Source of the DNA: Semisulcospira habei
Taxonomy: Eukaryota; Mollusca; Gastropoda; Semisulcospiridae
Reading direction: 5' to 3'
NCBI GenBank assembly: GCA_036245525.1
Contig: BTPG01000001.1
Span: 224,654,545 to 224,718,544 of the forward strand
Length of the DNA: 64,000 nucleotides
Shown: piece by piece, positions 1 to 42,703 of the stretch
How the letters are laid out: the number at the start of each line of letters is the position of its first letter
Numbering within the stretch: the first letter of the stretch is position 1
Notes under the pieces: model-generated
What the model was told of the DNA's origin: nothing
Database searches by the model: none
Seen by the model: only the letters and a program-made list of their open reading frames with translations
Position numbers and translations under genes: made by a program

Positions 1-200
1 GGATGACAACATCACTCGGCACACCCTGAACGACCAAGCAGCCTTCTCTAGGGACAGCACTGCTTGCTCCACACGGAGAGGGGCCTAGAAAAGGTGGCCT
101 AACCAAAGCTCGTCCCCTCGCAACCCCAGTTGGCTAGCCGCGGTCAACGGGCATCTTCTCCTGCGGTCAAAAAACAAGAAAGAATAACGGATCCACTCTC

Positions 201-12711: not shown

Positions 12712-12719
12712 CACTGTAG
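12712..12719. repeat. Left target-site duplication of the Polinton (CACTGTAG)
   Basis: The same eight bases stand immediately outside the right terminus at 28874-28881. Polintons usually duplicate 6 bp, so the true duplication may be CTGTAG with two matching bases by chance. Confidence 0.85.
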
Positions 12720-13033
12720 AGAGAGTATATAGGAGAATACAACCCCACCCATTTAAGAAACAATTGATTTATTTAATCCTTTCCGTAAATAAACAAACGC
12801 ACTTGACCAAATTCATTTAACAGATTTATCTGCCCAGTCAGGTCCCCCAACCCCTTGGAAACAAAAGGCTAGTTAAAATATCTTCCCGAGAAATACACAC
12901 CACCCACCCACCCCCCCACACACACACCCCCACACCCCACCACTCAATGCTGTCAGAGTTGGCCTTCCTGAGAAATAGTGTCTACTTCCTGTTCATACCA
13001 CCATTGTAAACAATAGTCTTCTATGTCCAAATA

Positions 13034-13116
<83 letters not shown>

Positions 13117-13717
13117 CACACAAAACAAATTAGCATTCCTTTTTGTGTCAACGCTTCAATGTATGTCACTAAACCACTATGTCATTTTTCTTACTCTGGG
13201 GCAAACCAAAAATATAGAACAAATCTCTAATATAGGTTATTTCGTAAATGAAACGTCCAACGTGAAAAATTGTGTGGAGGAAAATTTATCTGTGAAAAGT
13301 TTTCACTTCACACATCGTGACTGCTGCGACGCACACGGACATTGCGCTGTTGAACAATCGGCCTTTGTGCTCAAGACTGTCGCATGATGAAACCGGATTC
13401 CTGTTGGGTGCAGTTATTGCCGTCATAACCTGTAGGTAGAGACAGCTGTTGTGTAGTCATGTGAGTTTACAAGATTGCATCTATTTACTCACAACCAGAA
13501 AGTTGGGCTTGAAAATTGGTTGTGAAACGGTTTCCTGTTTTCGCTCCAGTGGGTGACAATCAGCCTTTCATACAGTTATTTATTACCCTGTCGCGTGATG
13601 CCTTTAAATTGAAACCCACAACTTTAATCCCGGGAGAGACCTCAATTATTCAATTTAGTATACACCCCACCATGTTTTACAAGTGTTTTAGATCACTCGA
13701 GGAGAAAATCGGGGAGT
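12720..13717 (+). repeat. Left terminal inverted repeat of the Polinton
   Basis: It matches the reverse complement of about 27862-28873. The outer 800 or so bases are nearly identical. The inner part (after about 13550) has insertions, deletions and substitutions but still ends in the shared ATCACTCGAGGAGAAAAT block. A C-rich tract lies at 12900-12945 and a (TC)n tract at 13037-13113. Confidence 0.93.
13037..13113. repeat. (TC)n microsatellite inside the left TIR
   Basis: 77 bases of TC; the counterpart in the right TIR is 71 bases of GA at 28484-28554. Confidence 0.95.
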
Positions 13718-13841
13718 GAGTTGTTAGTTTGAACCAGATCACGGACATTGCCTTGTCCTGTTATGCATTTAAATTGAAACCAGATCACGGACATTTGTGT
13801 TGCGTGCTGTTTACCCAACCAACATGATAATGGCGGACCTA

Positions 13842-13892
13842 TCTGTGATTTTAGACCTTGCAGCTTCTGGGTGTAAGGTCTAAAATCACAGA
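13842..13892. promoter_or_regulatory. Perfect 18-bp hairpin upstream of the ATPase gene
   Basis: The arms at 13842-13859 and 13875-13892 are exact reverse complements (TCTGTGATTTTAGACCTT) around a 15-base loop. It lies just inside the left TIR, 168 bases before the ATPase start. A role in replication or transcription is inference. Confidence 0.75.
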
Positions 13893-14059
13893 CCGCACAC
13901 CGTCACTGACGTCCAAGTAGGGAGAAAATAAAACCAGACAAGCTTTTCGTAGTCATTATTATAAGGCTTGCGGTGTGAGTGGTTAGTTTGAAACCCCTTT
14001 TATAACCAGAAAGGCAAGCATAGTGTTTTTGTACAAACAGATTATATTGTGTTTTTAAA

Positions 14060-14665
14060 ATGGACTTAATGACGCACGATTCACATTGCGGCCTATTTTG
14101 TGGCGCCACTTCGTGTGGGAAGACTGAATTTGTTCTTAACCTCTTACAAACAAGATACCTTCATCATTTCGAAAACATTGTAATATTTTGTCCAACAATC
14201 AAACACAACAAAGCTTATCACAACCGTTCATTCATTTGGACTGACAACAACATATACTTAGTCGACCCTGAGAAAAAACTGAATGATTACCTGCTATATT
14301 TTTACAAGCAATTTGAAGGACAGCCAACATTGTTCATAGTTGATGACTGTTCTGCAGAGAAAGACATTGTCAAAAAGAGAAACATATTAGCAGAACTTGC
14401 CTTCAGTGGCAGACATGCAAACATAAGTGTATGGATTCTCACTCAGAAATATAATGCTGTACTGAAAGATTTTCGAGAACAGTTAAAGTTTATCTGTTTG
14501 TTTTACTGTAAGGACCGTGACAGCTTTGAAGACTGTCTCAGAGAGAACGATGTCATTCCAAATAAGCAAGAACGGGATGATGTAAAAAATAAACTGAAAT
14601 CAACTAAGCATCTAAAGCTCATTTTAAAGACAGATCAACCCACTGGGTATGGGTTAGTAAATTAA
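14060..14665 (+). CDS. ATP: Polinton packaging ATPase (A32/FtsK-HerA type)
   Basis: The protein has 201 residues and is predicted to be the motor that packages DNA into the capsid. Walker A is GATSCGKT at residues 15-22, very near the N-terminus as in other Polinton and A32-like ATPases. Walker B is TLFIVDDC at about 90-97, and a sensor-like SVWILTQ follows at about 125-131. The start is the ATG at 14060, giving a compact MDLMTHDSHCG leader. The frame is intact. It is the first plus-strand gene inside the left TIR. A 97-residue unknown frame follows, and then the DNA polymerase, all on the same strand. Confidence 0.93.
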   Translation: MDLMTHDSHCGLFCGATSCGKTEFVLNLLQTRYLHHFENIVIFCPTIKHNKAYHNRSFIWTDNNIYLVDPEKKLNDYLLYFYKQFEGQPTLFIVDDCSAEKDIVKKRNILAELAFSGRHANISVWILTQKYNAVLKDFREQLKFICLFYCKDRDSFEDCLRENDVIPNKQERDDVKNKLKSTKHLKLILKTDQPTGYGLVN

Positions 14666-14692
14666 TTTATCTTTTTGGTTTGTCTATAAAAA

Positions 14693-14986
14693 ATGATGGA
14701 CGGACAAGAGGATCAAAATTGGCCTATTGGTAAATTCATGGATATTACATCGAGTTTCAGGGATTTTATGCTTATTAGTGACTTAAAAACACAAGTTAGA
14801 CGCCCTTTTTCAGAACTCCCATTACCGATGAAGATGTACATGACATATAGTTTTTATCTTGGATATTCTAATACTTTTCCACTTTATAATAATAGGACAG
14901 CAAATTTTTTAGTTTATGATGCTAAATCTGACTGGTTTAAGATTATGTTTTTAAAACATATACTATCAAATAAAAAAAGAAAATAA
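14693..14986 (+). CDS. Small Polinton protein of unknown function
   Basis: 97 residues with an aromatic- and lysine-rich C-terminus (HILSNKKRK). It lies 27 bases after the ATPase and before the polymerase on the same strand. I recognise no domain. It is not the adenovirus-type protease, since no His...Cys catalytic arrangement is seen. It could start at the first or second of two adjacent Met codons. Confidence 0.5.
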   Translation: MMDGQEDQNWPIGKFMDITSSFRDFMLISDLKTQVRRPFSELPLPMKMYMTYSFYLGYSNTFPLYNNRTANFLVYDAKSDWFKIMFLKHILSNKKRK

Positions 14987-15181
14987 AAATGTTAAATTTA
15001 TTACTGTCAGTAAAACGATATTACACATGCAAAAGCTTGAAAATGATACCACAGAAGACATATCAATGAAGTGGCTTATTAGTTGGTGATTAATTTTGTC
15101 TATTATATAGATTTTAGTCAATAAAGTGCCATTTTCATTATATAATTTTCTATTTATTTTTTTGTCGGACAAATAAAAAAG

Positions 15182-18100
15182 ATGGACAACCGTCAAAGAT
15201 TAAGAAACGTGTTTCACACAACTGACTTACCTATATATAATATTTACAATGTCTATGAATCAATAGAAAGATCTTTTTTAGTCATACAAAATAACCTTCT
15301 TTCTGATAGTGTAAAGATTCAGATTGTTGCAAAAATAGAATTTGTCAGAGATGTTGGTAAAGTTATTGTAACGTATATCTCGACAAGGCAGCACACAGTT
15401 AATTCGAGAAGAGAACTAGAGAAAGTGTTTAGAGAAAGATTGTTACCAGACTTCCATGAAGCAATTGACAGAGCAGAAATGCAAGGGTCTGGCTGGCATG
15501 AAGGCCTTGTACATGAACTACAACTAAAGCAGTCAAGATATCATCCTATTTTAGGCAAATCATGGATACCACTTCCAACTGAGGTTGCAAAAAAAAAGGC
15601 TGTCGTCAATATTCAGAACAATGATAATTTCTGTTTTATGTGGTGTGTGCTTTCTAAACTTCATTTTGTAAAAACAAAACCTGAACGTGTATCTAACTAT
15701 ACCAAATTTATAAACGAACTCAACTTCAGTGGCATTGAGTTCCCTGTTAAAATAGAGGACATAGACTTGTTTGAAAAACTAAATCCTGGTATATCTGTGA
15801 ATGTGTTTGTATGGGATAATCAATCTGAGAATAAGTTACAGCCAATTAGAGTATCACCAATTGCCCCAACATATGGACAGTCAGAAGATAAACATGTTGA
15901 TATGTTGCTAATAAGCTCTGGTGATAACTTTCACTACACAATTATCAGAAATATGTCACGTCTAATTCATAATCATGTATCAAAACATAATGGTAAACAG
16001 GAAGTGTGTAAGAGATGTTTACAAAGATTCTCCTCTATTGCAGTGGCACATAAACACATTCTACATTGTAGGTCAGCTGATGACATACAAACTGTACTTA
16101 AGTATCCAGAGTCTGGTAGTCAAGTGTATTTTAAAAACTATGGGAATCAACAAAAGCTGCCATTTGTAGTATACACAGATTTTGAATCACTCGTCGTTCC
16201 ATATGAAGGTCCAATTCCAGAGTCATTACCAAAGACTATAAAATTGAGTGACCAAGTGGTGTGTTCTTTTGGATACATTATTGTTAGGTCAGACGGTCTT
16301 CATTCAGAGCCTGTTATCTACAGAGGTGAAAATGCAGCATGTCTGTTTTTAACAGAAATGAGACATCTGTATAGTCAGGTAGTACAGTATCTCACAACAT
16401 GTCAGATGCCTTTAGTGATGACAGAAGAAGACAAACTGAAATTTGATACAGCTGAGATGTGTTGGATTTGTGAACAGCCTCTGGGAGGTGATAAAGTTCG
16501 TGACCACGATCACATAACAGGGAGTTACAGAGGTGCTGCACATAGCAATTGTAACTTGTTATTAAAAATAGATCCTAAGACATACAAGTTACCAATCTTT
16601 TTCCACAATCTCAAAGGATATGATTCACACATTATCATGCAGGCTGTAGACGAGTCGTACAAAAAAATTAGTTGTATTGCCCAGACAACTGAGAAATACT
16701 TGACTTTTAGGTTAGATAAATTAGCATTTTATGACTCTATGCAACATCTGTCTTTAGGGTTGGCTAGTCTAGCAGAAGGACTGACTGAGTATCCAATAAC
16801 AAGTAAATATTTTGAGCCAGAATTGATTAAGAAAGGAGTCTATCCATATGAGTACATCAGTGACTGGGTAGTTTTTGAAGAAACAAGACTGCCACCAAAA
16901 GAGAAATTTTATTCTACACTAACTGGCAAAGGTATTTCTGACTCTGAATATCAACACGCACTTGATGCATGGGGGAAGTTAGGATGTCAAACAATTGGTG
17001 ACTATCACGACCAGTACTTGAAAGCTGATGTTTGCTTGCTAGCAGACGTATTTGAAAGTTACCGTGAAAAGGGTTTGTTACACTACAAGCTTGACCCTGC
17101 TTGTTACATCACTAGTCCTGGCATGACATGGGATGCATTTTTGAAATCCAGTAAGATATTTATAGACCTGTTGTCTGATCGTACGATGGGTGAAATGGTG
17201 GAACGTGGATTGAGGGGAGGGATTAGTCTAGCAGCAAACAATTATGCCAAGGCAAATAATAAATATCTTGATGACTTTGACCCCTCAAAGCCAAGGTCAT
17301 TTATTACGTACGTGGACGCTAACAATTTGTACGGATTCGCGATGTGTGAATTGTTGCCATTAAAAAACTTTTGTTTGTATGATTTGTCACAGTATGGCAT
17401 AAAAAAAATTAACAAAATATATTATGGATCGAGGTCAAAATGATGAAAAGGGTTGGATCTTTGAAGTAGACCTGGAGTACCCACACCACCTACATGATTA
17501 CCACAATGATTATCCGTTGGCTGTTGAGAAAATGAGTATGACGGGGAAAAAAGAAGACACCAAACTTGTACCAAATTTAAATGACAAATTCAATTACGTT
17601 TGCCACTACTGCTTGTTGCAGTTTTACATCAGACACGGGTTAGTACTAAAAAAAGTTCACAGAGGAATTCAATTTGATCAGAGTGCTTTCATGAAAGATT
17701 ACATAATGAAGAACACAACCCTTCGTGCCAGAGACGGCAACACTGCATTTGACAAAGACTTCTTTAAGCTTATGAACAATGCCTGTTTTGGTAAGACGAT
17801 GGAAAATCCTCATCACCGCAAAGATGTGAGACTGGTCACAACTGAATCGGGTGCAATTAAACTTACAGGCAAGCCCCAGTACACAGGGTATAAAGAATTT
17901 CATTCATCATTGTATGCTGTGTCACTCAAAAAAAAGATTGTTAAACTGGACAAGCCAGTATTCATTGGTATGGCAATTCTTTAGTTGTCAAAATTATTAA
18001 TGCTTGAATTTTATTATGATTACTTTAAACCGAAGTATCCTGACTGCCGTCTGTTAAACACTGACACTGACTCTATGATCATAGACGTGCCTACTGAAGA

Positions 18101-18608
18101 CTTTTATGAAGACATGAAAACAGAACTACACATGTATGACACGTCTGATTACCCTAAAGACCATCCACTGTTTAGCACACAAAACAAGAAAGTGCCTGGA
18201 AAGTTTAAGGATGAACTAAATGGTGTGCCTATAGTTGAGTATGTTGGACTGAGATCAAAAATGTATTCTATACTGCATCAAAAGGGAAGTCAATCCAAAG
18301 CCAAAGGTATCAAGAAAACAGCGATAAAAAATAAAGACATTCGACATGAACATTATAAGCAAGTATTAGATGGAGAACTGATGCCTGATTATCCAAACAA
18401 AACACTGAGGTCAAATAGACACAATATTGAAATGATCCAAACACATAAGAAGTCTCTAGCAGTAGGGGACACGAAACGAGTGTTTTTCAGTAAGGAAAAA
18501 GCTTATGCACCAGGTCATTACAGACTCAAGTTATCTGAAGAAATAGCTGACGAACTGGTTGATGAACTAATCAATGAGTTAGTTGATGAAATGATTAAAA
18601 ATGCGTAA
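15182..18608 (+). pseudogene. POLB: Protein-primed DNA polymerase B of Polinton (frameshift plus stop)
   Basis: This would replicate the element DNA. The first frame (15182-17443, 753 residues) has an N-terminal Polinton-type region and a CxxC...H...C finger near 279-296. Exonuclease motif I is TDFESL (about 331), and a CxxC...DHDHITG...CN zinc/HNH-like insert lies at 427-455. Exonuclease II is in FHNLKGYDSH, exonuclease III near DVCLLADVFESY, and palm motif A is YVDANNLYG near 709. An A8 run at 17401-17408 marks a frameshift, and the next frame is open from 17403. It holds the VDLEYP block and motif B (NNACFGKTMEN). A TAG at 17982-17984 then interrupts the same frame. Motif C NTDTDSM follows at about 18055-18078. 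The gene ends 14 bases into the convergent integrase gene. Confidence 0.92.
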
Positions 18609-19554
18609 CGGTGTCTGGGGGAATAATCTGTAATTCTTCTCTGACAAATGCCCTCTGAGGCGCAGGCTCATACAGATAATATATTGTTGCGTCTGGACCA
18701 GGGATTATTTTTTTAATATTATGAACAGATGTTGACCATATGGGGTCTGTTGACCTGCGCCTGATGTCATTCTCAGCTTCCCCTGGTTGATATAAATATC
18801 TCACCTGTTTGGTAAATAAACTTGTGTCTGGAGGTGGGGTTGGCCCTTTTTTTGGCTCTGCAATTGTTTTCAATTTAATAGCATCAGCAGGCTTAGGGTG
18901 TCCTTCATTGTTCATTGCTTTTATCACATGTGGTAATCTCTTTACCCACTCAGTGTTACGGGTGTCATGCATGAGTTCCTTAGAATACTGGTAACTGAAA
19001 AGTCTCTCTGACAACTGTTTATTGAAATTTTCTACAATTGCCTGTGATCTGTGTACACCTGGAATGCCTCTTCTGACCAGTACACCATGCTTAGCAAATA
19101 ACTGATTAACTGCACCTTTGAATTCTGATCCATCATCAACCTGCACTAGTCTGGGGTATCTTAAAGGGCCTCGACCATATATTTTTGTTAATGCTGTAGC
19201 AACTGTGGTAGCTGTTTTGTCAGATATGGGTTCAGCGTCTTTATACCTTGAAGCAATGTCTACAACAGTCAGTGCATACTTGTATCATTTCTTTCTTATT
19301 GTGTCATGTGGTAAGAACAGGAGGTCCATTTGGTGTGTGTCATTTGGGGTAGTGTTTTCAAAATGGGGTCTTGTTATTTTTCTTGGAGCAGGTAAATATA
19401 TCTGCCAAATTGCCTGTCTCTGTAACCATTGCTTGACTTGATTGAGTGTTATATCTCCGCCCACAGCGGCATGTAATTTCTGAATAGCTGTTGCTCCTTT
19501 CCAATAGCCTGATGGAGAGTAATATATTTTTGATAGTTTATTTTCGGCTGCCAT
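18595..19554 (-). pseudogene. INT: Polinton retroviral-type (RVE) integrase with one in-frame stop
   Basis: This is the DDE integrase that inserts the element and makes the target duplication. The likely start is the ATG at 19552-19554 (MAAENKL), preceded by an A-run. Visible features are an N-terminal helical/zinc-like region and the first catalytic Asp in HQMDLLFLP (near 19330). The second Asp is in VQVDDGSEF (near 19140), with the Glu in AIVENFNKQ about 35 residues on. The C-terminal SH3-like/chromo region has VRYLYQPGE...DPIWS and AFVREELQIIPP. A TGA at 19282-19284 lies between the first Asp and the ALTVVDIASRYK strand, and the frame is otherwise open. It overlaps the neighbouring 144-residue gene at its 5' end. 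Confidence 0.93.
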
Positions 19555-19972
19555 TTTTTCTAGCAATGAAAACTCCTGTAAAATAAACAAATGTCATTCC
19601 CACTAGAACAAAGATTATCTCCCCGTTTCTTTGTTGTGTGCTTGGTTTGTAATAGTCACTTAGTTTTGGTTTTGGGATAGACATATCTTCACCCGTGACT
19701 AAAAAATACTCACGGATTGCTTCGTCTGTATTTGAAAACGTATGCTGTGCGTGACCTTCAAGCCTGAGTTTTTCATTGATGAAATCAAGTTTCTCAATTC
19801 TATTCTTTTCATAATCTTGCTGGGCTTGAGCAAGTTTTTCAGATGCTTCATTATGACGTTTTAATTCTTCTGCAGATTCTTCTCTACCCATTTTTGAAAA
19901 GAGATAATTAGAGCCACTAAATGCCAATGCGTTAACCATAGCACCTCCTATCATAATAGCTATCGTCGCCAT
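19538..19972 (-). CDS. Polinton-type two-membrane-segment protein
   Basis: 144 residues. There is a hydrophobic N-terminus (MATIAIMIGGAMVNALAFSG), then a long charged helical region likely to form a coiled coil (about 30-75), and a second membrane segment near 117-135 before a basic tail. This layout and the FINEKLR block are typical of a conserved Polinton protein of unknown function. A virion or membrane role is inference. It starts at the ATG at 19970-19972, with a TAAATAAAAATATT leader, and overlaps the start of the integrase gene by 17 bases. Confidence 0.72.
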   Translation of the reverse strand: MATIAIMIGGAMVNALAFSGSNYLFSKMGREESAEELKRHNEASEKLAQAQQDYEKNRIEKLDFINEKLRLEGHAQHTFSNTDEAIREYFLVTGEDMSIPKPKLSDYYKPSTQQRNGEIIFVLVGMTFVYFTGVFIARKNGSRK

Positions 19973-19983
19973 AATATTTTTAT

Positions 19984-20214
19984 TTACATAGAAACATTTT
20001 CAGGAATAATTCCCTGCTTGACAAGAAAATCTTTTGTCGCAATAGACGCTGTGACAACTACAATTAGCTTAGCACTGTCTTCGAAATCGAGTCTACTGAG
20101 GTCTGCTGATTTCATTTTGAGTAGACTTTTTCCCAGCATAGAATAAGCTACTGCTAATCCGCTGATTACGGCAGAGTGATACACAAGGTTCATTAAATTT
20201 TTTGAGTCGTTCAT
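19984..20214 (-). CDS. Small Polinton membrane-associated protein
   Basis: 76 residues with two moderately hydrophobic stretches (about 10-28 and 48-60). It lies 11 bases upstream of the 144-residue membrane protein gene on the same strand. Proteins of this size and pattern accompany it in other Polintons, to my knowledge without a known function. The frame is intact. Confidence 0.62.
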   Translation of the reverse strand: MNDSKNLMNLVYHSAVISGLAVAYSMLGKSLLKMKSADLSRLDFEDSAKLIVVVTASIATKDFLVKQGIIPENVSM

Positions 20215-20249
20215 TTCTTAGGCAAGAAAAATTAAAATAATTAATTTAT

Positions 20250-20681
20250 TTACTGCATGTAAAATGAGTCCAAAGGTTTTGACACTGTTGGTAATGTGGA
20301 GACTTCTTCTTTTATTTTTGGAGTGTCTGATTTTTTGGTCACTGTACGAGTCTGTGGTTTGTATTTTTTGTATAATTGATAACCTACATAACCAAATCCT
20401 ACAGCAAATCCAGCAACTATATATTTTGTTGTTTGAGGTTCGGGGTCAGGGTCAGACTTAGTTGTTTGTCTCTCACTTTCATGAAGGTGTGACGGTACTG
20501 ACACAGGTCCTGACGATCCTGACGGTGGATCAGTTACATGAGTCTTTTCTGTTTGTGCCTTAAGCTGTAATTTTTTTTGCCTATTATATTCAGCTAATCT
20601 TTTTCCAGCATCAACACAGCCTGGACTTTTAGTCTTCGTCACAGTTTGAACCTGTGTCAAAACTGGAGTCGTCTCGTCCAT
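20250..20681 (-). CDS. Polinton single-pass membrane protein with basic N-terminus
   Basis: 143 residues. The N-terminal half is Lys/Arg/Gln-rich with a PGCVDAGKRLAEYNRQKK region, followed by a Ser/Pro linker and one membrane segment at about 85-102 (YIVAGFAVGFGYVGY). A basic tail follows. The GKRLAEYN block is seen in other Polinton proteins. It overlaps the 3' end of the upstream 173-residue gene by about 50 bases in a different frame, as happens in compact virus-like genomes. Confidence 0.65.
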   Translation of the reverse strand: MDETTPVLTQVQTVTKTKSPGCVDAGKRLAEYNRQKKLQLKAQTEKTHVTDPPSGSSGPVSVPSHLHESERQTTKSDPDPEPQTTKYIVAGFAVGFGYVGYQLYKKYKPQTRTVTKKSDTPKIKEEVSTLPTVSKPLDSFYMQ

Positions 20682-21150
20682 TTGATACTTCTTTTTCTTC
20701 TGCAGTAAAATTTATTTTTGAAAAATCGATATAACTACTAGTTACCATCAAAGTTACGGCAGGTGCAAGGTAATTGCCAAACTTGTAAAACATGGTACAT
20801 GCTAATTTGCCAATCGAACTAGAAACTATAGGGTTGCTTTCGAGATCATGAGAAAGGCTGTCAGTGTCTATTGGTATGAAGTGATTAACAGCTTTTGTGT
20901 ATAGGTAAATAAGAGACCTGCTTAAATCGCGTGTCATTAGTGAAGCAATATGGTTTTCATATTTAGCATGAAGTTTTAATAGTTCGTCAGCGGTGAGAGA
21001 CTCTATGTCTTCTACCATGTATTGTTTTCCGAGATAAGTCTTTGATTTGCCTGAGACAATAACAGAAAGAATGCGTTGTTTTTTCGAGTCTAAGTCTTTG
21101 TTCTCTACCGCATTGATATCATTAAGAAGAAGTAATTCGTCTTGGTTCAT
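20629..21150 (-). CDS. Polinton protein of unknown function, 173 residues
   Basis: The protein is mostly helical by composition, with a charged acidic C-terminus (SSFDTGSNCDED). A hydrophobic stretch near 120-140 (APAVTLMVTSSYI) could be a membrane-contact segment. It is the first gene of the minus-strand block that runs toward the integrase, and it begins next to the hairpin-rich intergenic region 21151-21468. I recognise no catalytic motif. Confidence 0.6.
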   Translation of the reverse strand: MNQDELLLLNDINAVENKDLDSKKQRILSVIVSGKSKTYLGKQYMVEDIESLTADELLKLHAKYENHIASLMTRDLSRSLIYLYTKAVNHFIPIDTDSLSHDLESNPIVSSSIGKLACTMFYKFGNYLAPAVTLMVTSSYIDFSKINFTAEEKEVSNGRDDSSFDTGSNCDED

Positions 21151-21468
21151 TTTATAATAAAATAAAAAAAAACTTTGCCTGTGAATAACTTATGAAGTTA
21201 CTGTTCATGTAACTGTCTAGAATAATGTGATCTTACTTGATAACTAATTTCAAAGTTACCTACAACTTACAAGTAACTTTGACGTTAGTTATCATAAGTT
21301 CTTAACCCAAGTCATAAGACACTCGGACAGATTTCTCAAGTTACAAGGACAACAAGAAAACTTTTTTTTAGTAATAATCTGGTGGTGGGGCTGATGGCAT
21401 CAAATGAGCAGGCATGACATCTCTTTGCGAAGTGTATGACAAAAATAATGGATTACCAAAACCTATCA
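21151..21468. promoter_or_regulatory. Inverted-repeat-rich intergenic region of the Polinton
   Basis: The arms TGATAACTAATTTCAAAGTTAC (in two parts, 21238-21259) and 21273-21294 are reverse complements with two mismatches around a 13-base loop. The GTTAC/GTAAC and AACTTATGA/TCATAAGTT motifs recur several times across 21186-21345. It is one of the longest non-coding stretches inside the element, and a replication or transcription-control role is inference. Confidence 0.65.
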
Positions 21469-22094
21469 TTACTTGCTTGTAAGTTCTCGAACTTTTTTCA
21501 TAGTTTCTTCTACGCCTATCTTTTTTCCTTGTTCTAAAAAAGATTTCTTTAGCTCTTCAACATTTACAGCCTGACTACGCATCTTATTCTGTATTTCAGA
21601 TTTTTGTTGTTTATAGTTAGCCAAATCATCCTGGACTCGCTTAAATTCTTCGTCATCAATTTCATTATTTTCCAAAGCCTTACTAATAATAAGTTTTATA
21701 CTCGTCAGCTTAGCTGCTGCGAGCGTACTTAATGCTTCATGCTTCTGCAACTTCATATAAAATCTTTTGTTAATGGCTTCCATACCAAAGCATGCTAGAC
21801 TTGTGACAAGACCAATACCTTCAACAGCAATTCCTATAACACTTCCCACCCCCGTTGCAAAAAGAGTTATACCTCCTACAGATAATCCGGCTGAAACCAC
21901 CCCATGGCCATTGATGTGTTGTGTACAGAATTGAAAACCGTATTGTAACGGCGTTTACACCTCGAGTATTTTGCTTGTTCTTCTTCCAAATACTTCAACG
22001 CTTCTGTAATATTCATTAAACGAAATGAATCTGCCTTTAATGTTTTATCACGCTCAATAGGCTCAGGTGGTATTTGTGGATACAAGTTCACCAT
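21469..22094 (-). pseudogene. Polinton glycine-rich membrane/coiled-coil protein split by a frameshift
   Basis: There are two overlapping frames. 21876-22094 gives an N-terminal part with an EALKYLEEEQAKYSR helix. 21469-21900 starts with a hydrophobic Gly-rich segment (VSAGLSVGGITLFATGVGSV) and continues as a long charged helix. In other Polintons the same order is found in one protein. The switch point lies at the G run near 21896-21901, where one frame ends in unrelated residues. This is most simply a frameshift, though programmed shifting cannot be excluded from sequence alone. Confidence 0.66.
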
Positions 22095-22115
22095 TTTTTA
22101 TTTACAAATATTTTT

Positions 22116-23000
22116 TTAATCAGCAATTACATTTTGCAACTCTTCAAAATTATACAATTTGCTGGCATAATAAAATGCAACAAGATCAATGTGTTCAAGG
22201 TTTATGTAAGTTAGACGAACAAAAGTTGTTTTGTCAACCACCACCTTGACAGCTGGAATACTGCTCGAAACATTAATAACATCATTATTTTTTGTAATAG
22301 CAATAAAGACCTTTGATGATTCTGATACTGTTTCATCCCATGTAAGTTTAATTCCTTGTGCAATTTGAGCCTCTTTAGCAGTAGCAACAGATTTCATGAT
22401 AATTTCAAATACTATTGTCGCTTCTCTAGCCACGACTAAGCTTGCTGGCATAAACACAACAGAAGTATCTGATCTACCCTTTCTAGTTGTAAGAAGATAT
22501 CTTCGTTTCTCATAATTTTCAACTTTCAGTTTTTCTCTGTTATTGTTGTCTAGGGCAAAACTTGGAACAAGGCTTACAATAAGCGGCCCAGAATTAACAA
22601 CCTTCCTAAACACTAAGGCGCCTTCATCATCAGTGTATACATAAGGACTAATAAATTCAATCTTTATGTCCCAGTCAATTGTGGGTGGTGGTGCCGGTAC
22701 AGGTGAAACAACCCATTTAGTACCCACATGTATTAAGTTGTAGGGCACATTATTTACAAGATTAGGCGCAACAGGCACAGTAACATCACGTAGCTGACCA
22801 AGTTTAGGAATCTGTCTTTCACCATCTTTCATGTCAACAATTACTTTTCTCTTGTACATGCCATAGGAATCAAGTTCAAAACCATATATTTCTCCAATTT
22901 CTCCCTCTTTCTCAAAATCCTGTACGTCTGCCAAATCTTTCAACTCTGTTACTGGACACGCAACTGGTATGATTCTCGGCTTTGGACCAAGACCACTCAT
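22116..23000 (-). CDS. Polinton protein of unknown function, about 294 residues
   Basis: The likely start is the second Met (MSGLGPKPR at 22998-23000), preceded by ATAAAAATG. A start four codons upstream is possible. The protein is beta-rich by composition, with a PVPAPPPTIDW linker near 115. It sits directly downstream of the putative penton gene on the same strand, with about 20 bases between them. A structural role is plausible by position, but I see no diagnostic motif. The frame is intact. Confidence 0.6.
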   Translation of the reverse strand: MSGLGPKPRIIPVACPVTELKDLADVQDFEKEGEIGEIYGFELDSYGMYKRKVIVDMKDGERQIPKLGQLRDVTVPVAPNLVNNVPYNLIHVGTKWVVSPVPAPPPTIDWDIKIEFISPYVYTDDEGALVFRKVVNSGPLIVSLVPSFALDNNNREKLKVENYEKRRYLLTTRKGRSDTSVVFMPASLVVAREATIVFEIIMKSVATAKEAQIAQGIKLTWDETVSESSKVFIAITKNNDVINVSSSIPAVKVVVDKTTFVRLTYINLEHIDLVAFYYASKLYNFEELQNVIAD

Positions 23001-23020
23001 TTTTATAAACAAAAATAAAA

Positions 23021-23734
23021 TTATTTAATTTCCAAAACAACATAAAAATCATGCATTACAACTGGTTTACCATTCTGATTAGTTACAGATAAGCACAATG
23101 ATTCAAAGAAACTAGAACCTAATTTTTTAAACTGAGAATTAGGAAATCTAGCAACCACATTTTCACAATATGGGGCAGTTCCAGTTGGCAAGCATCTTAA
23201 CAAAGTTGAAGGCTTTCCATTGTGTACATTTTCAGTAGTGTTCAGTTCTTTCAAATGAACATTTAGCACTGTGTGTACTGACAAATGAACAGGATATCTG
23301 CCAGTTATTCTTGGTTTTTTTGGTGATAGTAGACTACCAACTGATTGTGACCAATCTTCATCTGGATGTGTTATTGTTTTAAAAAATCCAAGTAATAATA
23401 AAAGACTAATTGATAAAGAAAACTGACCACTTTTCGGAAAATCAATTGAAACAAGTAAATTAGCTGGGTTTAAAGTTGCTTTAATTTTAAATTCATTTTG
23501 AAGCCATTCAGCTAAAGTACAAAAGTCATAATATCCGGCTCGTAAAGTATCACCCTTCTCAATACCATCAAGAGTTCCACTTACAGAATAATTTTCATCA
23601 TCCGTTACATTAAACCACTTTACTGTGTAGAACATTTCATGGATAGCTACAGCCTTGCTACCATCACGATTATCAATCCCATTAGTTAACCACATTGGTT
23701 TGCTTGTGTCAATATTTGTTAAGGTTATAAACAT
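23021..23734 (-). CDS. Putative penton (minor capsid) protein of the Polinton
   Basis: About 237 residues from the ATG at 23732-23734, which has the ATAATAAAAATG leader. Features recalling Polinton penton single-jelly-roll proteins are a GYYDFCTLAEWLQ block, then SIDFPKSGQFSLSISLLLLLGF. A long strand PVHLSVHTVLNVHLKEL and a C-terminal SVTNQNGKPVVMHDFYVVLEI follow. It is divergent from the 408-residue gene at 23762, with only 27 bases between starts. The assignment rests on these patterns and on position near the major capsid gene, not on a profile search. Confidence 0.6.
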   Translation of the reverse strand: MFITLTNIDTSKPMWLTNGIDNRDGSKAVAIHEMFYTVKWFNVTDDENYSVSGTLDGIEKGDTLRAGYYDFCTLAEWLQNEFKIKATLNPANLLVSIDFPKSGQFSLSISLLLLLGFFKTITHPDEDWSQSVGSLLSPKKPRITGRYPVHLSVHTVLNVHLKELNTTENVHNGKPSTLLRCLPTGTAPYCENVVARFPNSQFKKLGSSFFESLCLSVTNQNGKPVVMHDFYVVLEIK

Positions 23735-23761
23735 TTTTATTATCACATAAAAAAAAAAAGG

Positions 23762-24988
23762 ATGGAATTTAAATCACCAACCATTACCACTACAAACGCA
23801 TTTCAATTCAATGTGAATGCCAAATATAATGTTGCACCTACTTATGAACAGAAAATAATTCAGTTAAATCAGCTTGATATTGCTGTGTCTGAACAAGATT
23901 TATTTCAAGTCAAAGTACCCAATCCGTTTGATCATTACCTAAACCCTCCAATAACAGACGATGCTACAGCAAGAAAGTGGTCTTCAAGTCCACTACAGAT
24001 GTTTCAAAACCAACTTAACTTTGCCATACTGTGTTCTACTACAGGCTGTGGTGTTTCATTTACAGACCATTTGAATCACTCAAACAAACTGATTAGGTCT
24101 GTGTATCGTTTCCATGTTTATTACCAGCTTAGACGTATACTGTCAGAACTGCATACACCACTACCAACTGAATCCAGTTTCAACAGGTTTAACAACCCCA
24201 TGGATATGAAAGCATTTGAACGCATCTGTAATGAATTTAACATAAGCACTAAGTATGACTTTACACAAAAACTTGATGATCACAAAGGCATGGGAACACT
24301 GTATTATGCTTTGAGTCATAGACAATACCCTCAAGATTACTGGCCTCCCTACACTTCATTCTCATCAAAATCACAAGTCTGGTTAGGTTCAATAGAACAG
24401 AAACAATCTAACGCATGGTCAACATTTGTCTTGGACAGGAGTGACGGATTTACTCAAGCAGGAGTCGAGCGCGTAAATGAGTCTATCAGAACATATGTCT
24501 GGTGTATATTAGGTGCACAATCATTAACAAAATCTAATATTCTGAATGGAAGTGGTAAATTTGAAACACAAAAACAGTTTCTCGCTAATCTTGAAGATTC
24601 AGTAAATTCATCAGTTGATCTCCCATCAAGCATACAGCGTTACCAAGATGTACTCAGATATGCCAGATCAAAAGTTGACTTTGTAGTTGGCACTGGGTTA
24701 TACATGTTACCATCTGACCTTCAACTCCAAATGGGTACAATAACAAATTATAATAATGAAATCATTGTTGCTGGGAGTGATCAAAAACTAGGTCTCAATA
24801 AATCTGTAAATTTAGGAGGAACAACTGTGCACGTACAGTTGAAAAAAACATTACAAGTGATTACTTCCCTTGCTCCAACAGCTATACAACCAGTACAGTC
24901 AACCCCTGACACACATGAATCCGAGAGAACTGCATTGGTAATTGGCCTTACTGGAGTAGGAATATTACTTCTTTACCTGTTTCATTAA
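23762..24988 (+). CDS. Polinton conserved protein with C-terminal membrane anchor
   Basis: 408 residues, intact. Recognisable Polinton-type blocks are FAILCSTTGCGVSF (about 87-100), SVYRFHVYYQLRRIL, the FNRFNNPMD segment, VLDRSDGFTQAGVERVNESIRTY, and QDVLRYARSKVDFVVGTGLYMLPSDL. A C-terminal membrane helix (about 390-406) ends the protein. Function is unknown to me; the anchor suggests a virion-membrane or host-membrane role (inference). It converges on the 408-codon minus-strand membrane gene, overlapping it by 24 bases. Confidence 0.72.
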   Translation: MEFKSPTITTTNAFQFNVNAKYNVAPTYEQKIIQLNQLDIAVSEQDLFQVKVPNPFDHYLNPPITDDATARKWSSSPLQMFQNQLNFAILCSTTGCGVSFTDHLNHSNKLIRSVYRFHVYYQLRRILSELHTPLPTESSFNRFNNPMDMKAFERICNEFNISTKYDFTQKLDDHKGMGTLYYALSHRQYPQDYWPPYTSFSSKSQVWLGSIEQKQSNAWSTFVLDRSDGFTQAGVERVNESIRTYVWCILGAQSLTKSNILNGSGKFETQKQFLANLEDSVNSSVDLPSSIQRYQDVLRYARSKVDFVVGTGLYMLPSDLQLQMGTITNYNNEIIVAGSDQKLGLNKSVNLGGTTVHVQLKKTLQVITSLAPTAIQPVQSTPDTHESERTALVIGLTGVGILLLYLFH

Positions 24989-26188
24989 ATAACCTATCAT
25001 TAACCCTCCTACTGTCACCAAAAAGATCCAAACATGCTCCGCCATAAACCCTACTGCCTTTGCCGCTGTACTAATCAACCAATTGACAACCGTGCCTAAA
25101 ATGCCAGGTAACGAGTCTACTGCTTTCAGAGCCAATTTCTTAAGCAAGTCTGATATGTGTGACAACTGTTTTTTTACCCATGACTGTAAATCTTTTGGAT
25201 CTGTGGGGACTGGGGTTGGTGGTGCTGGAGGTGGAGAACCACCACCCGTTACAGCCAACACAACTGTACTGATAATAAACCCCAGAGCTGTAATTAAACT
25301 GGCAATTGTGATACCCTGTTCTCTGAAAAGTGTTTTAAGTCTCTCAGCCAGAGTAGTGTCTTCGTGAAGTATTTTCTGAATAGTTTCTCTAATCCTGTTG
25401 ACCTGTGATTTCAGTTTTTCCCTTCCAATACTAATCGCTTCTAACCGTCCTGATCTTTCTATCTGCAAATCATTTAATCTGTGTTGGATTCTTTCTTTCA
25501 TTTCTGTGTCAAGATTCCCATTGTCTGCGGTAGCCAGTTTCTCTTTCTCACGTTCTATGTGTTTATCAAGCTCTCCCAGTTTGGCAAGATTATTAACCAT
25601 CTCACCTCTTATTGTCTGCAGTGATTTATCCAACCCTATAATCTCCCGCATTGACAAAGGTGGATCATCTATTGTTTTCAAAGCGTCATTTATTTGTCCT
25701 TCAGTAAATGAGGTTTCTTGTATCACTGTGTTTGCTATTTCTGGTAGGCTTGTTATTGGTGCCATTTCAATTTCTTGCCCTGTTGGTAACTTTGTTTGCG
25801 TGTCTTGAAGCACACTAACCAGTCTTGGCGTGACAGGAGACCCACCAATACCAAGTTGACGCAAGGCACTAACACCACCTTCATTTTTTATTGTACTTAA
25901 AGCCCTAAACCTACTAGGGTCTTTTTTGTTAGTCAATAGTACTTTTCCTTTGTCAACAGTATTTAAATATAAATGACCCTTGACATCAAGTTCAAACTGG
26001 TTAGGGTCTATGTTGTCTGGGCGATTACCAACATGATCATAAAATGAGTTCACTTTGGTTTCTAAAAGTTCATGACGTAAACTGTAAATATTTCTTGTAC
26101 CAGTCATATCTGCCATATCTGTTGTATTACCAAAATCATACATGTCATCCATTTCAAAATCTTCATGATTAAATCCTCCCGCGGCCAT
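24965..26188 (-). CDS. Large Polinton membrane protein with coiled coil
   Basis: About 407 residues from MAAGGFNHEDF (ATG at 26186-26188). The open frame extends 25 codons further upstream without support. The layout is an acidic N-terminus, a long coiled coil (about 185-270, rich in Glu, Lys, Leu), then FREQGITIASLITALGFIISTVVLAVTGGG as a membrane segment. A Pro-rich linker, amphipathic helices and a last membrane segment near the C-terminus follow. The REQGITIAS...ITGGG signature recurs in invertebrate Polintons. It is divergent from the major capsid gene across 41 bases. Confidence 0.75.
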   Translation of the reverse strand: MAAGGFNHEDFEMDDMYDFGNTTDMADMTGTRNIYSLRHELLETKVNSFYDHVGNRPDNIDPNQFELDVKGHLYLNTVDKGKVLLTNKKDPSRFRALSTIKNEGGVSALRQLGIGGSPVTPRLVSVLQDTQTKLPTGQEIEMAPITSLPEIANTVIQETSFTEGQINDALKTIDDPPLSMREIIGLDKSLQTIRGEMVNNLAKLGELDKHIEREKEKLATADNGNLDTEMKERIQHRLNDLQIERSGRLEAISIGREKLKSQVNRIRETIQKILHEDTTLAERLKTLFREQGITIASLITALGFIISTVVLAVTGGGSPPPAPPTPVPTDPKDLQSWVKKQLSHISDLLKKLALKAVDSLPGILGTVVNWLISTAAKAVGFMAEHVWIFLVTVGGLMIGYLMKQVKK

Positions 26189-26229
26189 TGTTTTTATTAA
26201 TTTAATTTTTTTTATTGTGCATAATAAAA

Positions 26230-27690
26230 ATGACACAGTCCTACGGATCAAAGTTAGACCCACACAGAAAACTACGTGAACCTTTCGGTGTTAAAGCAGT
26301 TAGACAATCAATTGTCATCACAAACAATCCTAGTACTATAGACCAAAACCAGACTCTTACTGTCAAGTTTCCAAACCTAGGCCCCAGTGACGTTATTGTT
26401 CCTGGTACTGCTCGCCTTGCTTTTAATATTGAACTTTCATCGGACGCAGATGACAAAAGAACACTAGTTAACAATCTAGGTAGAGCAATTATTAAGAATA
26501 TTAAAGTTAAACTTGAAGGACAGGAAGTGTTTAGTCTTGACGATGCTGATGTGTTCTACTGCTACACGGATTTGTGGCTTACAAGAGAAGAACGAGAAGA
26601 TCGTATTTACCAAGGCATACAGTCAGATAGCATTATGAAAATTCGAATAAATGCCTCAGACAAAACAACCACAGAAGGCAAGGACGTTATTGTGGCCGAA
26701 ACATATGGAAATAGGTTTTGCATTCCACTCGAATTTGAAATCCTAACAGGACATTCGCCTTATTACCAAGGGGCACTAAATGACCGCCTGAGCTTCGAAC
26801 TAACCTTCAATGATTACTCCAAAGTTATCAAATCAACGGATCTCAATGCATCATATAAGATCTCTAACATTTCCTTGGAATATGAGATTGTCACGCATAC
26901 TGAACTAGCCAGACTCATTCAAAATCAGTACCAGTCAAAACTTCCAATTTATTATGATCGAGTGATTAGACACAGTTTATTACCCAAAGACAAGAGCGAC
27001 CAAATTTGGAGTATAAACCTAAACACGCCTGCTAGGTCACTAAAAGGCGTTCTTATGTTATTTGTTGAAGCAAAAAGTCCTTACCAAGGAGATTCAGAAA
27101 AATTTTACAATCCGAAAATTACACATTTATCCTGTACAATCGAAGGCCGACCTAATCAAATTTTTGCGTCTGGAATGATGGGATATCAGCACTATGATGA
27201 GATCACAAAGTATTTTGCTGGGGGAAGTTCAGTCCTCTCTGCGCCGTCTGGTGCTTGAGGCGACTAGTTGTCGTTTCCGTAGCAAGTTTCTTTTTACAGG
27301 GTGGAGTCGCTAGCCCCACGCCTAACCCTCCTCCTTTATCCTGACTTGGGACAGGCAGTTAAGCCCCCAAAGGGGCCTCCCTGGTGGAGTTTTGCTGGGG
27401 GAAGACTTAGAGAAAAATCAGCAAATATTGCGTGCAAAGATCTGCATCTGTATGACGTAAGAATCGGTGAATACCTGACAGACAAGTACGCACTGTGGCT
27501 AGATCTACGTTCTACGGACGACAATTTCCTTCATGGTTCTGGCCGTATTATCGAAAACGGTAGTGACGGAATCTCAATTCAAATACAGAAAAAAACAGAA
27601 AAATCTGAAGCAATCAATATATATTTGTATCTGATTTATGATGCGCAACTAAACATCTCTGAGAGCAGGCTAAGTAGTCACATATATTAA
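26230..27690 (+). pseudogene. MCP: Polinton major capsid protein (double jelly-roll), split by an insertion
   Basis: The start at 26230 follows ATAATAAAA. The first part (to 27227) has an N-terminal strand region, VKFPNLGPSDVIVPGT, and the DVFYCYTDLWLT and YGNRFCIPLEFEILTGHSPYY blocks typical of Polinton capsids. The C-terminal part resumes at 27405 in the same frame (KYALWLDLRSTDDNFLHGSGR, then IYLYLIYDAQLNISE). Between them is a 177-bp insert flanked by 15-bp direct repeats. It keeps the frame but brings in stops, the first at 27256-27258. The protein would form the hexameric capsid units. Confidence 0.88.
27213..27404. mobile_element. 177-bp insertion in the capsid gene with 15-bp direct repeats
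   Basis: TTTTGCTGGGGGAAG occurs at 27213-27227 and again at 27390-27404. The unique segment is GC-rich, unlike the AT-rich gene around it, and has no poly-A tail. A CCTAACCCTCCTCCTTTATC stretch near 27321 reminds me of 3' ends of molluscan non-LTR elements or SINEs; that link is from memory and uncertain. Confidence 0.75.
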
Positions 27691-27861
27691 AAGTATTCAC
27701 TTAGCTTGGTTTTAATCCTTCACAGCCCATTTTGAATACCGAAATCACTATAAAATCCGAACGTATTAGTAGGCACGTCACGCTTGTGCTGAAACACGGA
27801 CTAAACTGAAAATAAAAGGCGTCGTTTCACTGAGGTAACCGTTTCACTACCGATTTCAACA

Positions 27862-28480
27862 TTCCCAATTTTCTCCTCGAGTGATCTAAAACACTTGTAA
27901 ACATGATGGGGTGTACTAGTAACTTGAATCATTTAGGTCTATCACTGGGATTAGAGTTATTGGGTTTTGTCTTTCAATTTAAATGCATCACGCGACAGTG
28001 ACTACGCAATAGCTTAAGCATAAAGACCTATTGTTCAGAAATGTCACCCACTGGAGCGAAAACAGGAAACCGTTTCACAACCAATTTTCAAGCCCAACTT
28101 TCTGGTTATTAAAGAGATGCAATCTTGTAAACTCACATGACTACACAACAGCTGTCTCTACCTACAGGTTATGACGACAATAACTGCACCCAACAGGAAT
28201 CCGGTTTCATCATGCGACAGTCTTGAGCACAAAGGCCGATTGTTCAACAGCGCAATGTCCGTGTGCGTCGCAGCAGTCACGATGTGTGAAGTGAAAACTT
28301 TTCACAGATAAATTTTCCTCCACACAATTTTTCACGTTGGACGTTTCATTTACGAAATAACCTATATTAGAGATTTGTTCTATATTTTTGGTTTGCCCCA
28401 GAGTAAGAAAAATGACATAGTGGTTTAGTGACATACATTGAAGCGTTGACACAAAAAGGAATGCTAATTTGTTTTGTGTG

Positions 28481-28556
<76 letters not shown>

Positions 28557-28873
28557 ATTTGGACATAGAAGACTATTGTTTACAATGGTGGTATGAACAG
28601 GAAGTAGACACTATTTCTCAGGAAGGCCAACTCTGACAGCATTGAGTGGTGGGGTGTGGGGGTGTGTGTGTGTGGGGGGGTGGGTGGGTGGTGTGTATTT
28701 CTCGGGAAGATATTTTAACTAGCCTTTTGTTTCCAAGGGGTTGGGGGACCTGACTGGGCAGATAAATCTGTTAAATGAATTTGGTCAAGTGCGTTTGTTT
28801 ATTTACGGAAAGGATTAAATAAATCAATTGTTTCTTAAATGGGTGTCGTTGTAATCTCCTATATACTTTCTCT
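27862..28873 (-). repeat. Right terminal inverted repeat of the Polinton
   Basis: Reverse complement of 12720-13717. The match is near-identical from 28873 inward to about 28045. Further in it contains indels, and it ends around the shared ATTTTCTCCTCGAGTGAT block. Confidence 0.93.
28484..28554. repeat. (GA)n microsatellite inside the right TIR
   Basis: Counterpart of the left-TIR (TC)n tract; six bases shorter. Confidence 0.95.
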
Positions 28874-28881
28874 CACTGTAG
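28874..28881. repeat. Right target-site duplication of the Polinton (CACTGTAG)
   Basis: Identical to 12712-12719. Confidence 0.85.
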
Positions 28882-35363: not shown

Positions 35364-35376
35364 TAATGACCAGTCT
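35364..35376. repeat. Right target duplication of RTE copy C (TAATGACCAGTCT)
   Basis: Identical to 33940-33952. Confidence 0.9.
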
Positions 35377-35970
35377 ATTCTAAAGAAAACCCAATTTTTT
35401 TATGAACAGTTGTTTGCTTCTAGAGAAGCAGAACTGGTGGACATTGACCTAACTTCTACTGTTGTCAGTCCCTCGTTGTCTGAGGAGGAGAGAGAGTCGA
35501 TTGAAGGGCCTATCTCTTTGGATGAAGCACTTAGTGCTCTAAAACGAATGAGTAATAACAAATTACTGGTTTGGATGGTTTTACCTCCGAATTTTACAAA
35601 TTTTTGGGTGGACAGTGGTTGCTTTCTTGTCAGATCTGTTAACCATTAACCATGCTTTTCAGTGTGGTCAGATGTCAGTCACTCAGAGGCAGGGAGTGAT
35701 CACCTGTATACCAAAGGAAGGTAAACATAAAAAGTTTTTTTTTCTTTTTTAAACTGGAGGCCCATTACTCTCCTGCACACTAGTTATAAAATCTCATCAG
35801 CCTCTATATTCGAGCGATTGAAAAAGGTACTGCCCTCCATTATTCATCAGGACCAAAAAGGTTTTCTGAAGGGCCGATACATTGGGGAAAATATTCGTCT
35901 TCTATATGATGTACTTTTTTATACACTTGTCAATCAATTGTTGTCTGGAACTCTCTACCTATTAACATTA
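35377..35970 (+). pseudogene. L1/Tx1-like reverse transcriptase, middle part
   Basis: 35410-35649 reads FASREAELVDIDL, then ESIEGPISLDEALSALKRMSNNK, the segment leading to the KSPGxDG block. After breaks, the RPITLLHTSYKISS region (about 35760-35800) and GFLKGRYIGENIRLLYDVL (about 35860-35912) follow. Frames change at least twice. Confidence 0.72.
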
Positions 35971-41625: not shown

Positions 41626-42203
<578 letters not shown>

Positions 42204-42703
42204 NNNNNNNNNNNNNNNNNNNNNNNNNNNNNNNNNNNNNNNNNNNNNNNNNNNNNNNNNNNNNNNNNNNNNNNNNNNNNNNNNNNNNNNNNNNNNNNNN
42301 NNNNNNNNNNNNNNNNNNNNNNNNNNNNNNNNNNNNNNNNNNNNNNNNNNNNNNNNNNNNNNNNNNNNNNNNNNNNNNNNNNNNNNNNNNNNNNNNNNNN
42401 NNNNNNNNNNNNNNNNNNNNNNNNNNNNNNNNNNNNNNNNNNNNNNNNNNNNNNNNNNNNNNNNNNNNNNNNNNNNNNNNNNNNNNNNNNNNNNNNNNNN
42501 NNNNNNNNNNNNNNNNNNNNNNNNNNNNNNNNNNNNNNNNNNNNNNNNNNNNNNNNNNNNNNNNNNNNNNNNNNNNNNNNNNNNNNNNNNNNNNNNNNNN
42601 NNNNNNNNNNNNNNNNNNNNNNNNNNNNNNNNNNNNNNNNNNNNNNNNNNNNNNNNNNNNNNNNNNNNNNNNNNNNNNNNNNNNNNNNNNNNNNNNNNNN
42701 NNN
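42204..42703. other. Assembly gap (500 N)
   Basis: Exactly 500 N, which suggests a placeholder and not a measured length. Confidence 0.99.

What the first reader, a model, noticed from the sequence alone, without database searches (positions are those of the whole stretch)
12720..28873. A near-complete 16.15 kb Polinton with exact ends
Both TIRs, the flanking direct repeat and the full core gene set can be read directly, so the element can be delimited to the base. It combines a polymerase, integrase, packaging ATPase, capsid and a dozen accessory genes, including several with no function that I know of.
Basis: partly seen in the sequence, partly recalled or inferred. Interest (0 to 1): 0.85.

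Follow-up and report, generated by a model that had tools for sequence, protein, structure and literature searches.

The report
Damaged Polinton from a recombining family
This is an integrated, now broken copy of a Polinton (a virus-like mobile element), and its close siblings in the same genome are patchworks of one another, which suggests that they mixed while copying themselves.

Summary
The element is real: a Polinton/Maverick provirus of 16,156 bp at 12718-28873 (left end two bases earlier than stated), with ~0.84 kb TIRs and an exact 6-bp target duplication, CACTGT. ATPase, PolB, rve integrase and a capsid-family gene are present. It is not intact: PolB has a frameshift and a TAG, the integrase a TGA, the capsid gene a 162-bp insert with a 15-bp duplication, one accessory gene a frameshift. 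No protease was recognised. The PolB, integrase and capsid lesions were seen in no sibling read there. At least 28 other loci in the same 1.98-Gb genome carry TIRs at >=99% identity. Siblings are mosaics: two copies can match in PolB (0.0% rounded) yet differ by 6.8% in the 408-aa gene; PHI-type tests are significant in 7 of 8 gene pieces. Variants shared by copies show purifying selection, capsid-side genes included. Two of nine copies, the window's among them, have different alleles at their two ends. One sibling is a 15.5-kb palindrome of two capsid-side halves inside one 6-bp target duplication, so it probably integrated as one molecule. Best reading: a member of a known kind, from a recently active, recombining extrachromosomal pool; chromosomal gene conversion is the main rival.

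The parts
12712..12717 (.). left copy of the target-site duplication CACTGT
12718..13558 (+). left TIR (terminal allele AGAGAGAGTATATAGG...ACCCCA), with a (TC)38 microsatellite at 13037-13113
14060..14665 (+). packaging ATPase, Pox_A32 family (E 1.3e-13), 201 aa, open
   Evidence: phrog terminase 5.4e-7
14693..14986 (+). 97-aa accessory ORF; of 17 sibling pieces with a tblastn match, 5 carry the same allele (87.5-97.7% aa) and 12 a far diverged one (27-33% aa) in the same place. The 5 same-allele copies compared each lack one base that the window has
15182..17443 (+). PolB, first part, 753 aa: DNA_pol_B_2 (4.2e-5, 23 bits against a cut-off of 25.8) and endonuclease VII-like stretch (phrog 1.7e-6); frame lost at its 3' end
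17403..18608 (+). PolB, second part in another frame, interrupted by TAG at 17982-17984; holds DTDS, which I take for the palm motif from recall; no Pfam polymerase match of its own
18595..19593 (-). rve integrase, interrupted by an in-frame TGA at 19285-19287; rve 1.6e-7 (32.0 bits, cut-off 32.6), IS481-type 8.6e-11, retroviral integrase chains of the PDB 7.8e-8
19538..19972 (-). 144-aa ORF with hydrophobic ends, no known family
19984..20217 (-). 76-aa ORF, no known family
20250..20681 (-). 143-aa ORF, fast evolving (pN/pS 0.54 among 7 sequences)
20629..21150 (-). 173-aa ORF, no known family
21469..22097 (-). one accessory gene split over two frames in this copy (21876-22097 and 21469-21954); its counterpart reads as one frame in one arm of the palindromic sibling
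22116..23012 (-). 298-aa protein of unknown function; 6 homologs at E<=0.001 among 5.8 billion proteins
23021..23746 (-). 241-aa protein, probably the minor capsid protein (PX); label from recall, no family match
23762..24988 (+). 408-aa conserved protein with C-terminal hydrophobic helix; 556 homologs, confident AlphaFold model, no significant Foldseek match
24965..26263 (-). 432-aa protein, coiled-coil-like middle and C-terminal hydrophobic segment (by eye), no known family
26206..27690 (+). major capsid protein family gene (Capsid_N weakly but repeatedly), interrupted
27213..27404 (.). 162-bp insert (27228-27389) in the capsid gene, flanked by a 15-bp direct duplication (27213-27227, 27390-27404)
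   Evidence: absent from 14 siblings and both arms of the palindrome
28042..28873 (-). right TIR (terminal allele AGAGAAAGTATATAGG...ACGACA when read inwards), with (AG)35 at 28484-28554
28874..28879 (.). right copy of the target-site duplication CACTGT

Best explanation
A Polinton (polintovirus) provirus that integrated as a linear, TIR-ended DNA through its rve integrase and has since decayed. It belongs to a young, dispersed family. Its members descend from a pool of functional genomes that copied themselves with their own PolB (protein-primed replication: inferred from the family), were selected for their proteins including the capsid-side ones, and exchanged segments with one another before integrating. 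Shown: the anatomy, the lesions, the copies, the mosaicism, the selection, the hybrid ends and a palindromic sibling with its own target duplication. Inferred: recent activity, that the exchange took place between free replicating genomes, and that particles formed.
For: Ends and duplication. Genes. 40 TIR matches scored of 1162 candidates, each 99-100% identical over 294-303 bases: the window's own, 11 facing pairs and 17 single ends. PolB open across the place of this copy's lesions in 7 of 7 siblings that align fully, of 10 pairs fetched. Mean pN/pS 0.05-0.26 in ten core-gene pieces. Variants shared by two or more sequences 132 nonsynonymous to 300 synonymous, where neutrality expects 3.68 to 1; singletons 147 to 166; Fisher p 6e-6. 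E3-E5: 0.0% (rounded; pS 0.002 and 0.000) in the PolB pieces, 6.8% in the 408-aa gene; E1-E6: 4.6% in PolB5, 0.5% in the 408-aa gene. PHI-type p 0.001 in six gene pieces, 0.015 in a seventh. Two alleles of the 97-aa gene. Hybrid ends in 2 of 9. Palindrome with duplication GTGGTG.
Against: Gene conversion between chromosomal copies could also make mosaics. The capsid piece MCP5 gave no PHI signal (p 0.19, 10 sites). In the palindrome, the differences between the arms in the 298-aa gene are 8 nonsynonymous to 6 synonymous, unlike the 1 to 19 of the 408-aa gene. No protease was recognised. The capsid fold could not be confirmed: the partial model is poor and Capsid_N stays below its cut-off. Five of 11 insertions read share only 5 bp. 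No particle, transcript or free DNA was examined. Relatives in viral contigs: none in three scans.
Confidence: 0.72

Rival explanations
1. The copies are ordinary Polinton insertions, and the mosaicism arose later, by ectopic gene conversion between chromosomal copies.
For: Many dispersed copies with >=99% TIR identity are good conversion partners. The patchy differences between the two arms of the palindrome (13 in 22150-22420, 20 in 23841-24166, one elsewhere in 2484 bp) could be conversion tracts. Conversion reaching an end could also give hybrid ends.
Against: 97-aa alleles only 27-33% alike in protein at the same place are poor conversion substrates, though conversion from the flanks could carry them. 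The palindrome carries one 6-bp duplication round the whole, so that rearrangement most simply preceded integration. Hybrid ends inside one target duplication need no later event if a hybrid integrated.
Confidence: 0.25
2. Vertical, clonal descent: genes differ only in rate, and there is no exchange.
For: Genes do differ in mean divergence (mCP pS 0.009, PolB5 0.112).
Against: The ranking of pairs changes from gene to gene (E3-E5 alike in PolB and far apart in the 408-aa gene; E1-E6 the reverse), and PHI-type tests are significant in 7 of 8 gene pieces.
Confidence: 0.02
3. Assembly artefact: collapsed or chimaeric copies and a false palindrome.
For: Near-identical 16-kb repeats are hard to assemble (general knowledge); one-base indels in several copies may be read errors. 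No reads were examined.
Against: In 11 of 11 insertions read, different flanks carry a matching 5-6 bp duplication at both ends. The palindrome's arms differ by 34 substitutions in 2484 bp, so it is not a read folded on itself.
Confidence: 0.08

Closest known systems
Vertebrate Mavericks/Polintons (PMC8097293; section 7 read in full, passages of other sections)
   Same: Mean size 16.9 kb, TIRs within 46-1447 bp, 6-bp target duplication, (AG)3//(CT)3 among the end types, PolB + ATPase in one module and integrase + capsid genes in another; purifying selection on core genes.
   Different: Here no protease was recognised, capsid-side genes lie on both strands, and the copies inside one genome are mosaic, with hybrid ends and a palindromic derivative. 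The paper's intact elements have eight conserved ORFs (seven in Xenopus tropicalis).
Adintoviruses (PMC11071296; passages only)
   Same: PolB, rve integrase and hexon-like capsid gene, animal-associated; the preprint reports mixed Alpha/Beta pairings of hexon and PolB, which I read as exchange at a deep level.
   Different: Exchange here is among sibling copies in one genome. No named adintovirus sequence was compared.
Polinton-like viruses and virophages (listings, and passages of PMC11071308)
   Same: Capsid/ATPase module; related viruses of the same phylum.
   Different: According to PMC11071308 (passages), PLVs mostly lack the PolB and rve integrase found here.

Membership tests
Polinton/Maverick | TIRs with 6-bp target-site duplication | tested here: met
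   CACTGT exact in the window; of 11 insertions read, 6 share 6 bp and 5 share 5 bp
[quoted passage not shown]
   DNA_pol_B_2 4.2e-5, a little below the gathering score; palm motif named from recall; protein priming itself not testable
Polinton/Maverick | retroviral-type (rve) integrase | tested here: met
Polinton/Maverick | A32-type packaging ATPase | tested here: met
   Pox_A32 1.3e-13, above cut-off
Polinton/Maverick | double jelly-roll major capsid protein | tested here: inconclusive
   Capsid_N in 13 of 18 aligned members at E<=0.1, best 3.2e-4, 8 of 10 rescanned at E<=0.05, all below cut-off; model of the window's piece poor; no capsid in a PDB profile search
Polinton/Maverick | minor capsid (penton-like) protein | tested here: inconclusive
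   23021-23746 has no Pfam or PHROG match; label from recall
Polinton/Maverick | Ulp1/adenain-type cysteine protease | tested here: inconclusive
   no peptidase family among the ORFs scanned with Pfam; a diverged protease cannot be excluded
Adintovirus | capsid (hexon) sequence recognisable against named adintoviruses | not tested
   no named adintovirus sequence was at hand

The most novel reading that the evidence does not exclude
The genome holds an integrated sample of a co-replicating Polinton swarm: free linear genomes that exchanged segments, swapped ends and formed palindromic half-genome dimers before an integrase inserted them. That would be sequence evidence for an extrachromosomal, virus-like phase in an animal-type host, a phase that has been inferred but not seen.
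Probability: 0.45. Interest if true: 0.8.

Novelty: new member of a known kind. Interest (0 to 1): 0.58.

Why it matters
Whether Polintons move as transposons inside one genome or as viruses between cells is an open question, since particles had not been observed (abstract of PMC8097293, 2021). A genome with dozens of closely related copies, mosaic where compared, some with mismatched ends and one palindrome inserted with its own target duplication, makes an extrachromosomal recombining phase testable: the breakpoints and hybrid ends can be looked for in free DNA. The widespread 408-aa protein, with a confident model and no significant structural match, is a concrete target.
Full report
1. Ends. 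The inverted arms run inwards from 12718 and 28873 (blocks of 221, 218, 450 and 66 nt at 94-100% complementarity, partly overlapping). Reading the ends, the left flank ends in CACTGT at 12717 and the right flank starts with CACTGT at 28874; the element starts AGAGAGAGTATATAGG and ends CCTATATACTTTCTCT. The element is therefore 12718-28873, 16,156 bp. The two TIRs align over 855 columns with 8 mismatches and 23 gap columns.

2. Genes. Plus strand on the left: A32-type ATPase (Pox_A32, 1.3e-13, above cut-off), a 97-aa accessory ORF and PolB (DNA_pol_B_2, 4.2e-5, a little below cut-off), with an endonuclease VII-like stretch. Minus strand: rve integrase, five small accessory genes, a 298-aa protein and a 241-aa protein that I take, from recall, for the minor capsid protein. 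Then a 408-aa gene (+), a 432-aa gene (-) and the capsid-family gene (+). The capsid label rests on Pfam Capsid_N: 13 of 18 aligned family members match at E<=0.1, best 3.2e-4, and 8 of 10 rescanned at E<=0.05, all under the cut-off. The structural model of the window's capsid piece is poor, so the double jelly-roll is not shown here. No peptidase family was found in the ORFs scanned.

3. Lesions of this copy. PolB: frame lost near 17403-17443 and TAG at 17982. Integrase: TGA at 19285-19287. Capsid gene: a 162-bp insert with 15-bp duplication. Accessory gene 21469-22097: two frames, one frame in an arm of the palindromic sibling. The 97-aa gene differs by one base in length from 5 of 5 same-allele copies. 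In 10 other TIR pairs fetched for PolB, 7 align over the full 1301 bp (95.9-97.9%), one partly, two not; in 7 of 7 the frame is open for 418 aa. Siblings carry other changes: frames broken by a stop or by indels in 2 of 18 (ATPase), 3 of 15 (PolB5), 2 of 13 (PolB3, one the window's), 4 of 14 (integrase, one the window's), 3 of 12 (298-aa), 4 of 15 (mCP), 2 of 14 (408-aa; one of them has one inserted and one deleted base), 3 of 9 (432-aa), 2 of 14 (MCP5) and 0 of 17 (MCP3) sequences, the window's own included. Only sequences covering 90% of a piece in one alignment were counted, so grossly broken copies are left out; one-base indels may be read errors.

4. The family. A search with 301 bp of the left TIR gave 40 scored matches of 1162 candidates, each 99-100% identical: the window itself, 11 facing pairs (22 ends) and 17 single ends. 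This is a lower bound, as only the best 40 are scored. Of the 11 pairs, eight (E1-E8) are element-sized and their pieces follow the window's gene order, E8 lacking about 1 kb of PolB; one is a palindrome (E9); one is a 4.9-kb rearranged derivative (E11); one reads partly N and was left out. Of the 17 single-end pieces, three gave no gene match. The genome has 1.983 Gb in 507 contigs; eight contigs, whose lengths are given, sum to 1.963 Gb.

5. Selection. Genes were compared with up to 18 sequences per piece. Mean pS ranges from 0.009 (mCP) to 0.112 (PolB5) in the core genes; pN/pS is 0.10, 0.14, 0.05, 0.10 (ATPase, PolB5, PolB3, integrase) and 0.24, 0.26, 0.16, 0.21, 0.17, 0.24 (298-aa, mCP, 408-aa, 432-aa, MCP5, MCP3). 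Two-state variants found in two or more sequences are 300 synonymous, 132 nonsynonymous, 2 stop; singletons 166, 147 and 6; the neutral expectation is 3.68 nonsynonymous per synonymous. So most variation arose under selection, and singletons are twofold less constrained (Fisher p 6e-6), as expected if some are neutral changes after insertion. Variants that share descent or tracts are not independent events, so the p-value is only a guide. In single small genes the counts are few: mCP has 3 shared synonymous and 3 shared nonsynonymous variants.

6. Mosaicism. E3 and E5 differ by 0.0% (rounded) in both PolB pieces (pS 0.002 and 0.000) but by 6.8% in the 408-aa gene; E1 and E6 differ by 4.6% in PolB5 and 0.5% in the 408-aa gene; E4 and E7 show 0.0% in mCP and MCP5 and 3.7-6.0% in PolB and the 408-aa gene. 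Across 36 pairs of nine copies, 30 are heterogeneous between genes at p<1e-6; gene rates contribute to that count, so the reversals of rank are the stronger point. A PHI-type permutation test of my own (1000 shuffles) gives p 0.001, its floor, for the ATPase, PolB5, PolB3, integrase, 408-aa and 432-aa pieces, 0.015 for the 298-aa gene and 0.19 for MCP5, which has 10 informative sites; mCP and MCP3 were not given to the test. Of 17 sibling pieces with a tblastn match to the 97-aa protein, 5 hold the window's allele (87.5-97.7%) and 12 another at 27-33% identity in the same place.

7. Ends and target sites of siblings. Nine full-length-sized copies read at both ends (window, E1-E8) show three terminal alleles. 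Seven have the same allele at both ends. The window and E4 have different alleles at their two ends, within one shared duplication (6 bp exact in the window; 5 bp in E4, in C-rich flanks, so weaker). In the 11 insertions read, 6 bp are shared in six (window, E1, E5, E6, E7, E9) and 5 bp in five (E2, E3, E4, E8, E11).

8. The palindrome. E9 spans 15.5 kb and is made of two capsid-side halves head to head, with a central spacer of about 110 bp. Read in the left arm: TIR, capsid gene, 432-, 408-, 241- and 298-aa genes and accessory gene; in the right arm the same except about 2.2 kb with the 432-aa gene, which was not fetched. The pieces show no ATPase, PolB or integrase, and the total length leaves no room for them. 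Its flanks share GTGGTG. The arms differ by 3 substitutions (and 32 gap columns) over 1821 columns at the ends, by 8 (and 19 gap columns, most at the edge of the aligned stretch) over 1255 columns near the centre, and by 34 in 2484 bp between, of which 33 lie in two patches. Of the 20 in the 408-aa gene 19 are synonymous; of the 14 in the 298-aa gene only 6 are. So the arms are not one simple fold-back copy that later drifted evenly: they contain tracts from different alleles. One duplication round the whole suggests that the palindrome was inserted as a unit. Fold-back or end-to-end joining during replication of linear TIR-ended DNA is the mechanism I would name (from general knowledge of protein-primed replicons, not from a call).

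10. What is known. Vertebrate Mavericks have similar size, TIRs, 6-bp duplications, (AG)3 ends among others, and purifying selection (PMC8097293: section 7 read, other passages). Mixed lineage pairings are reported for adintoviruses (PMC11071296, passages). For palindromic Polintons, 'polinton' with 'palindrom' is held by 44 papers, of which 12 were listed, none with a title on it, and 'polinton' with 'inverted dimer' by none. Searches on recombination and mosaicism (12 of 243 listed; 12 of 44 listed) showed no title on mosaic sibling Polintons in one animal genome; only the listings were seen, and most subscription papers are not in the library. I therefore rate the element a new member of a known kind, and the mosaic, hybrid-ended, palindrome-bearing family as the interesting part.

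Noticed in passing
G000 C1:317399854-317415348 (L005, L006, L009, L010, L045, L048, L087): Palindromic sibling of two capsid-side halves with a central spacer of about 110 bp and a 6-bp target duplication GTGGTG.
   Followed up: yes
G000 C4:163047461-163052338 (L047): 4.9-kb derivative with both TIRs, a capsid/432-aa piece in inverted order and the ATPase end; 5-bp shared flank AGCCC.
   Followed up: partly
window 27228-27389: 162-bp insert with 15-bp duplication in the capsid gene; no other copy of it in the window or in the loci fetched, so its family is unknown.
   Followed up: partly
L068 (G000 C1:185964600-185970650): ATPase and PolB together with 298-aa and mCP pieces at lower identity (93.6%, 86.2%), which do not lie this close in the window: a rearranged copy.
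   Followed up: no
window 20250-21150 compared with E2, E3, E6: The 143-aa accessory gene has pN/pS 0.54 (7 sequences); three siblings each show 30 deleted bases in it and one stop codon in the 173-aa gene.
   Followed up: no
window 138-1070, 33985-35379, 38441-39382, 46972-47961, 48051-48716, 51695-53059: LINE-type endonuclease and reverse transcriptase fragments around the element.
   Followed up: no
window 42001-43000 and 42923-43639: A stretch of 21% GC next to a 370-bp tandem repeat of 1.9 copies at 98%.
   Followed up: no
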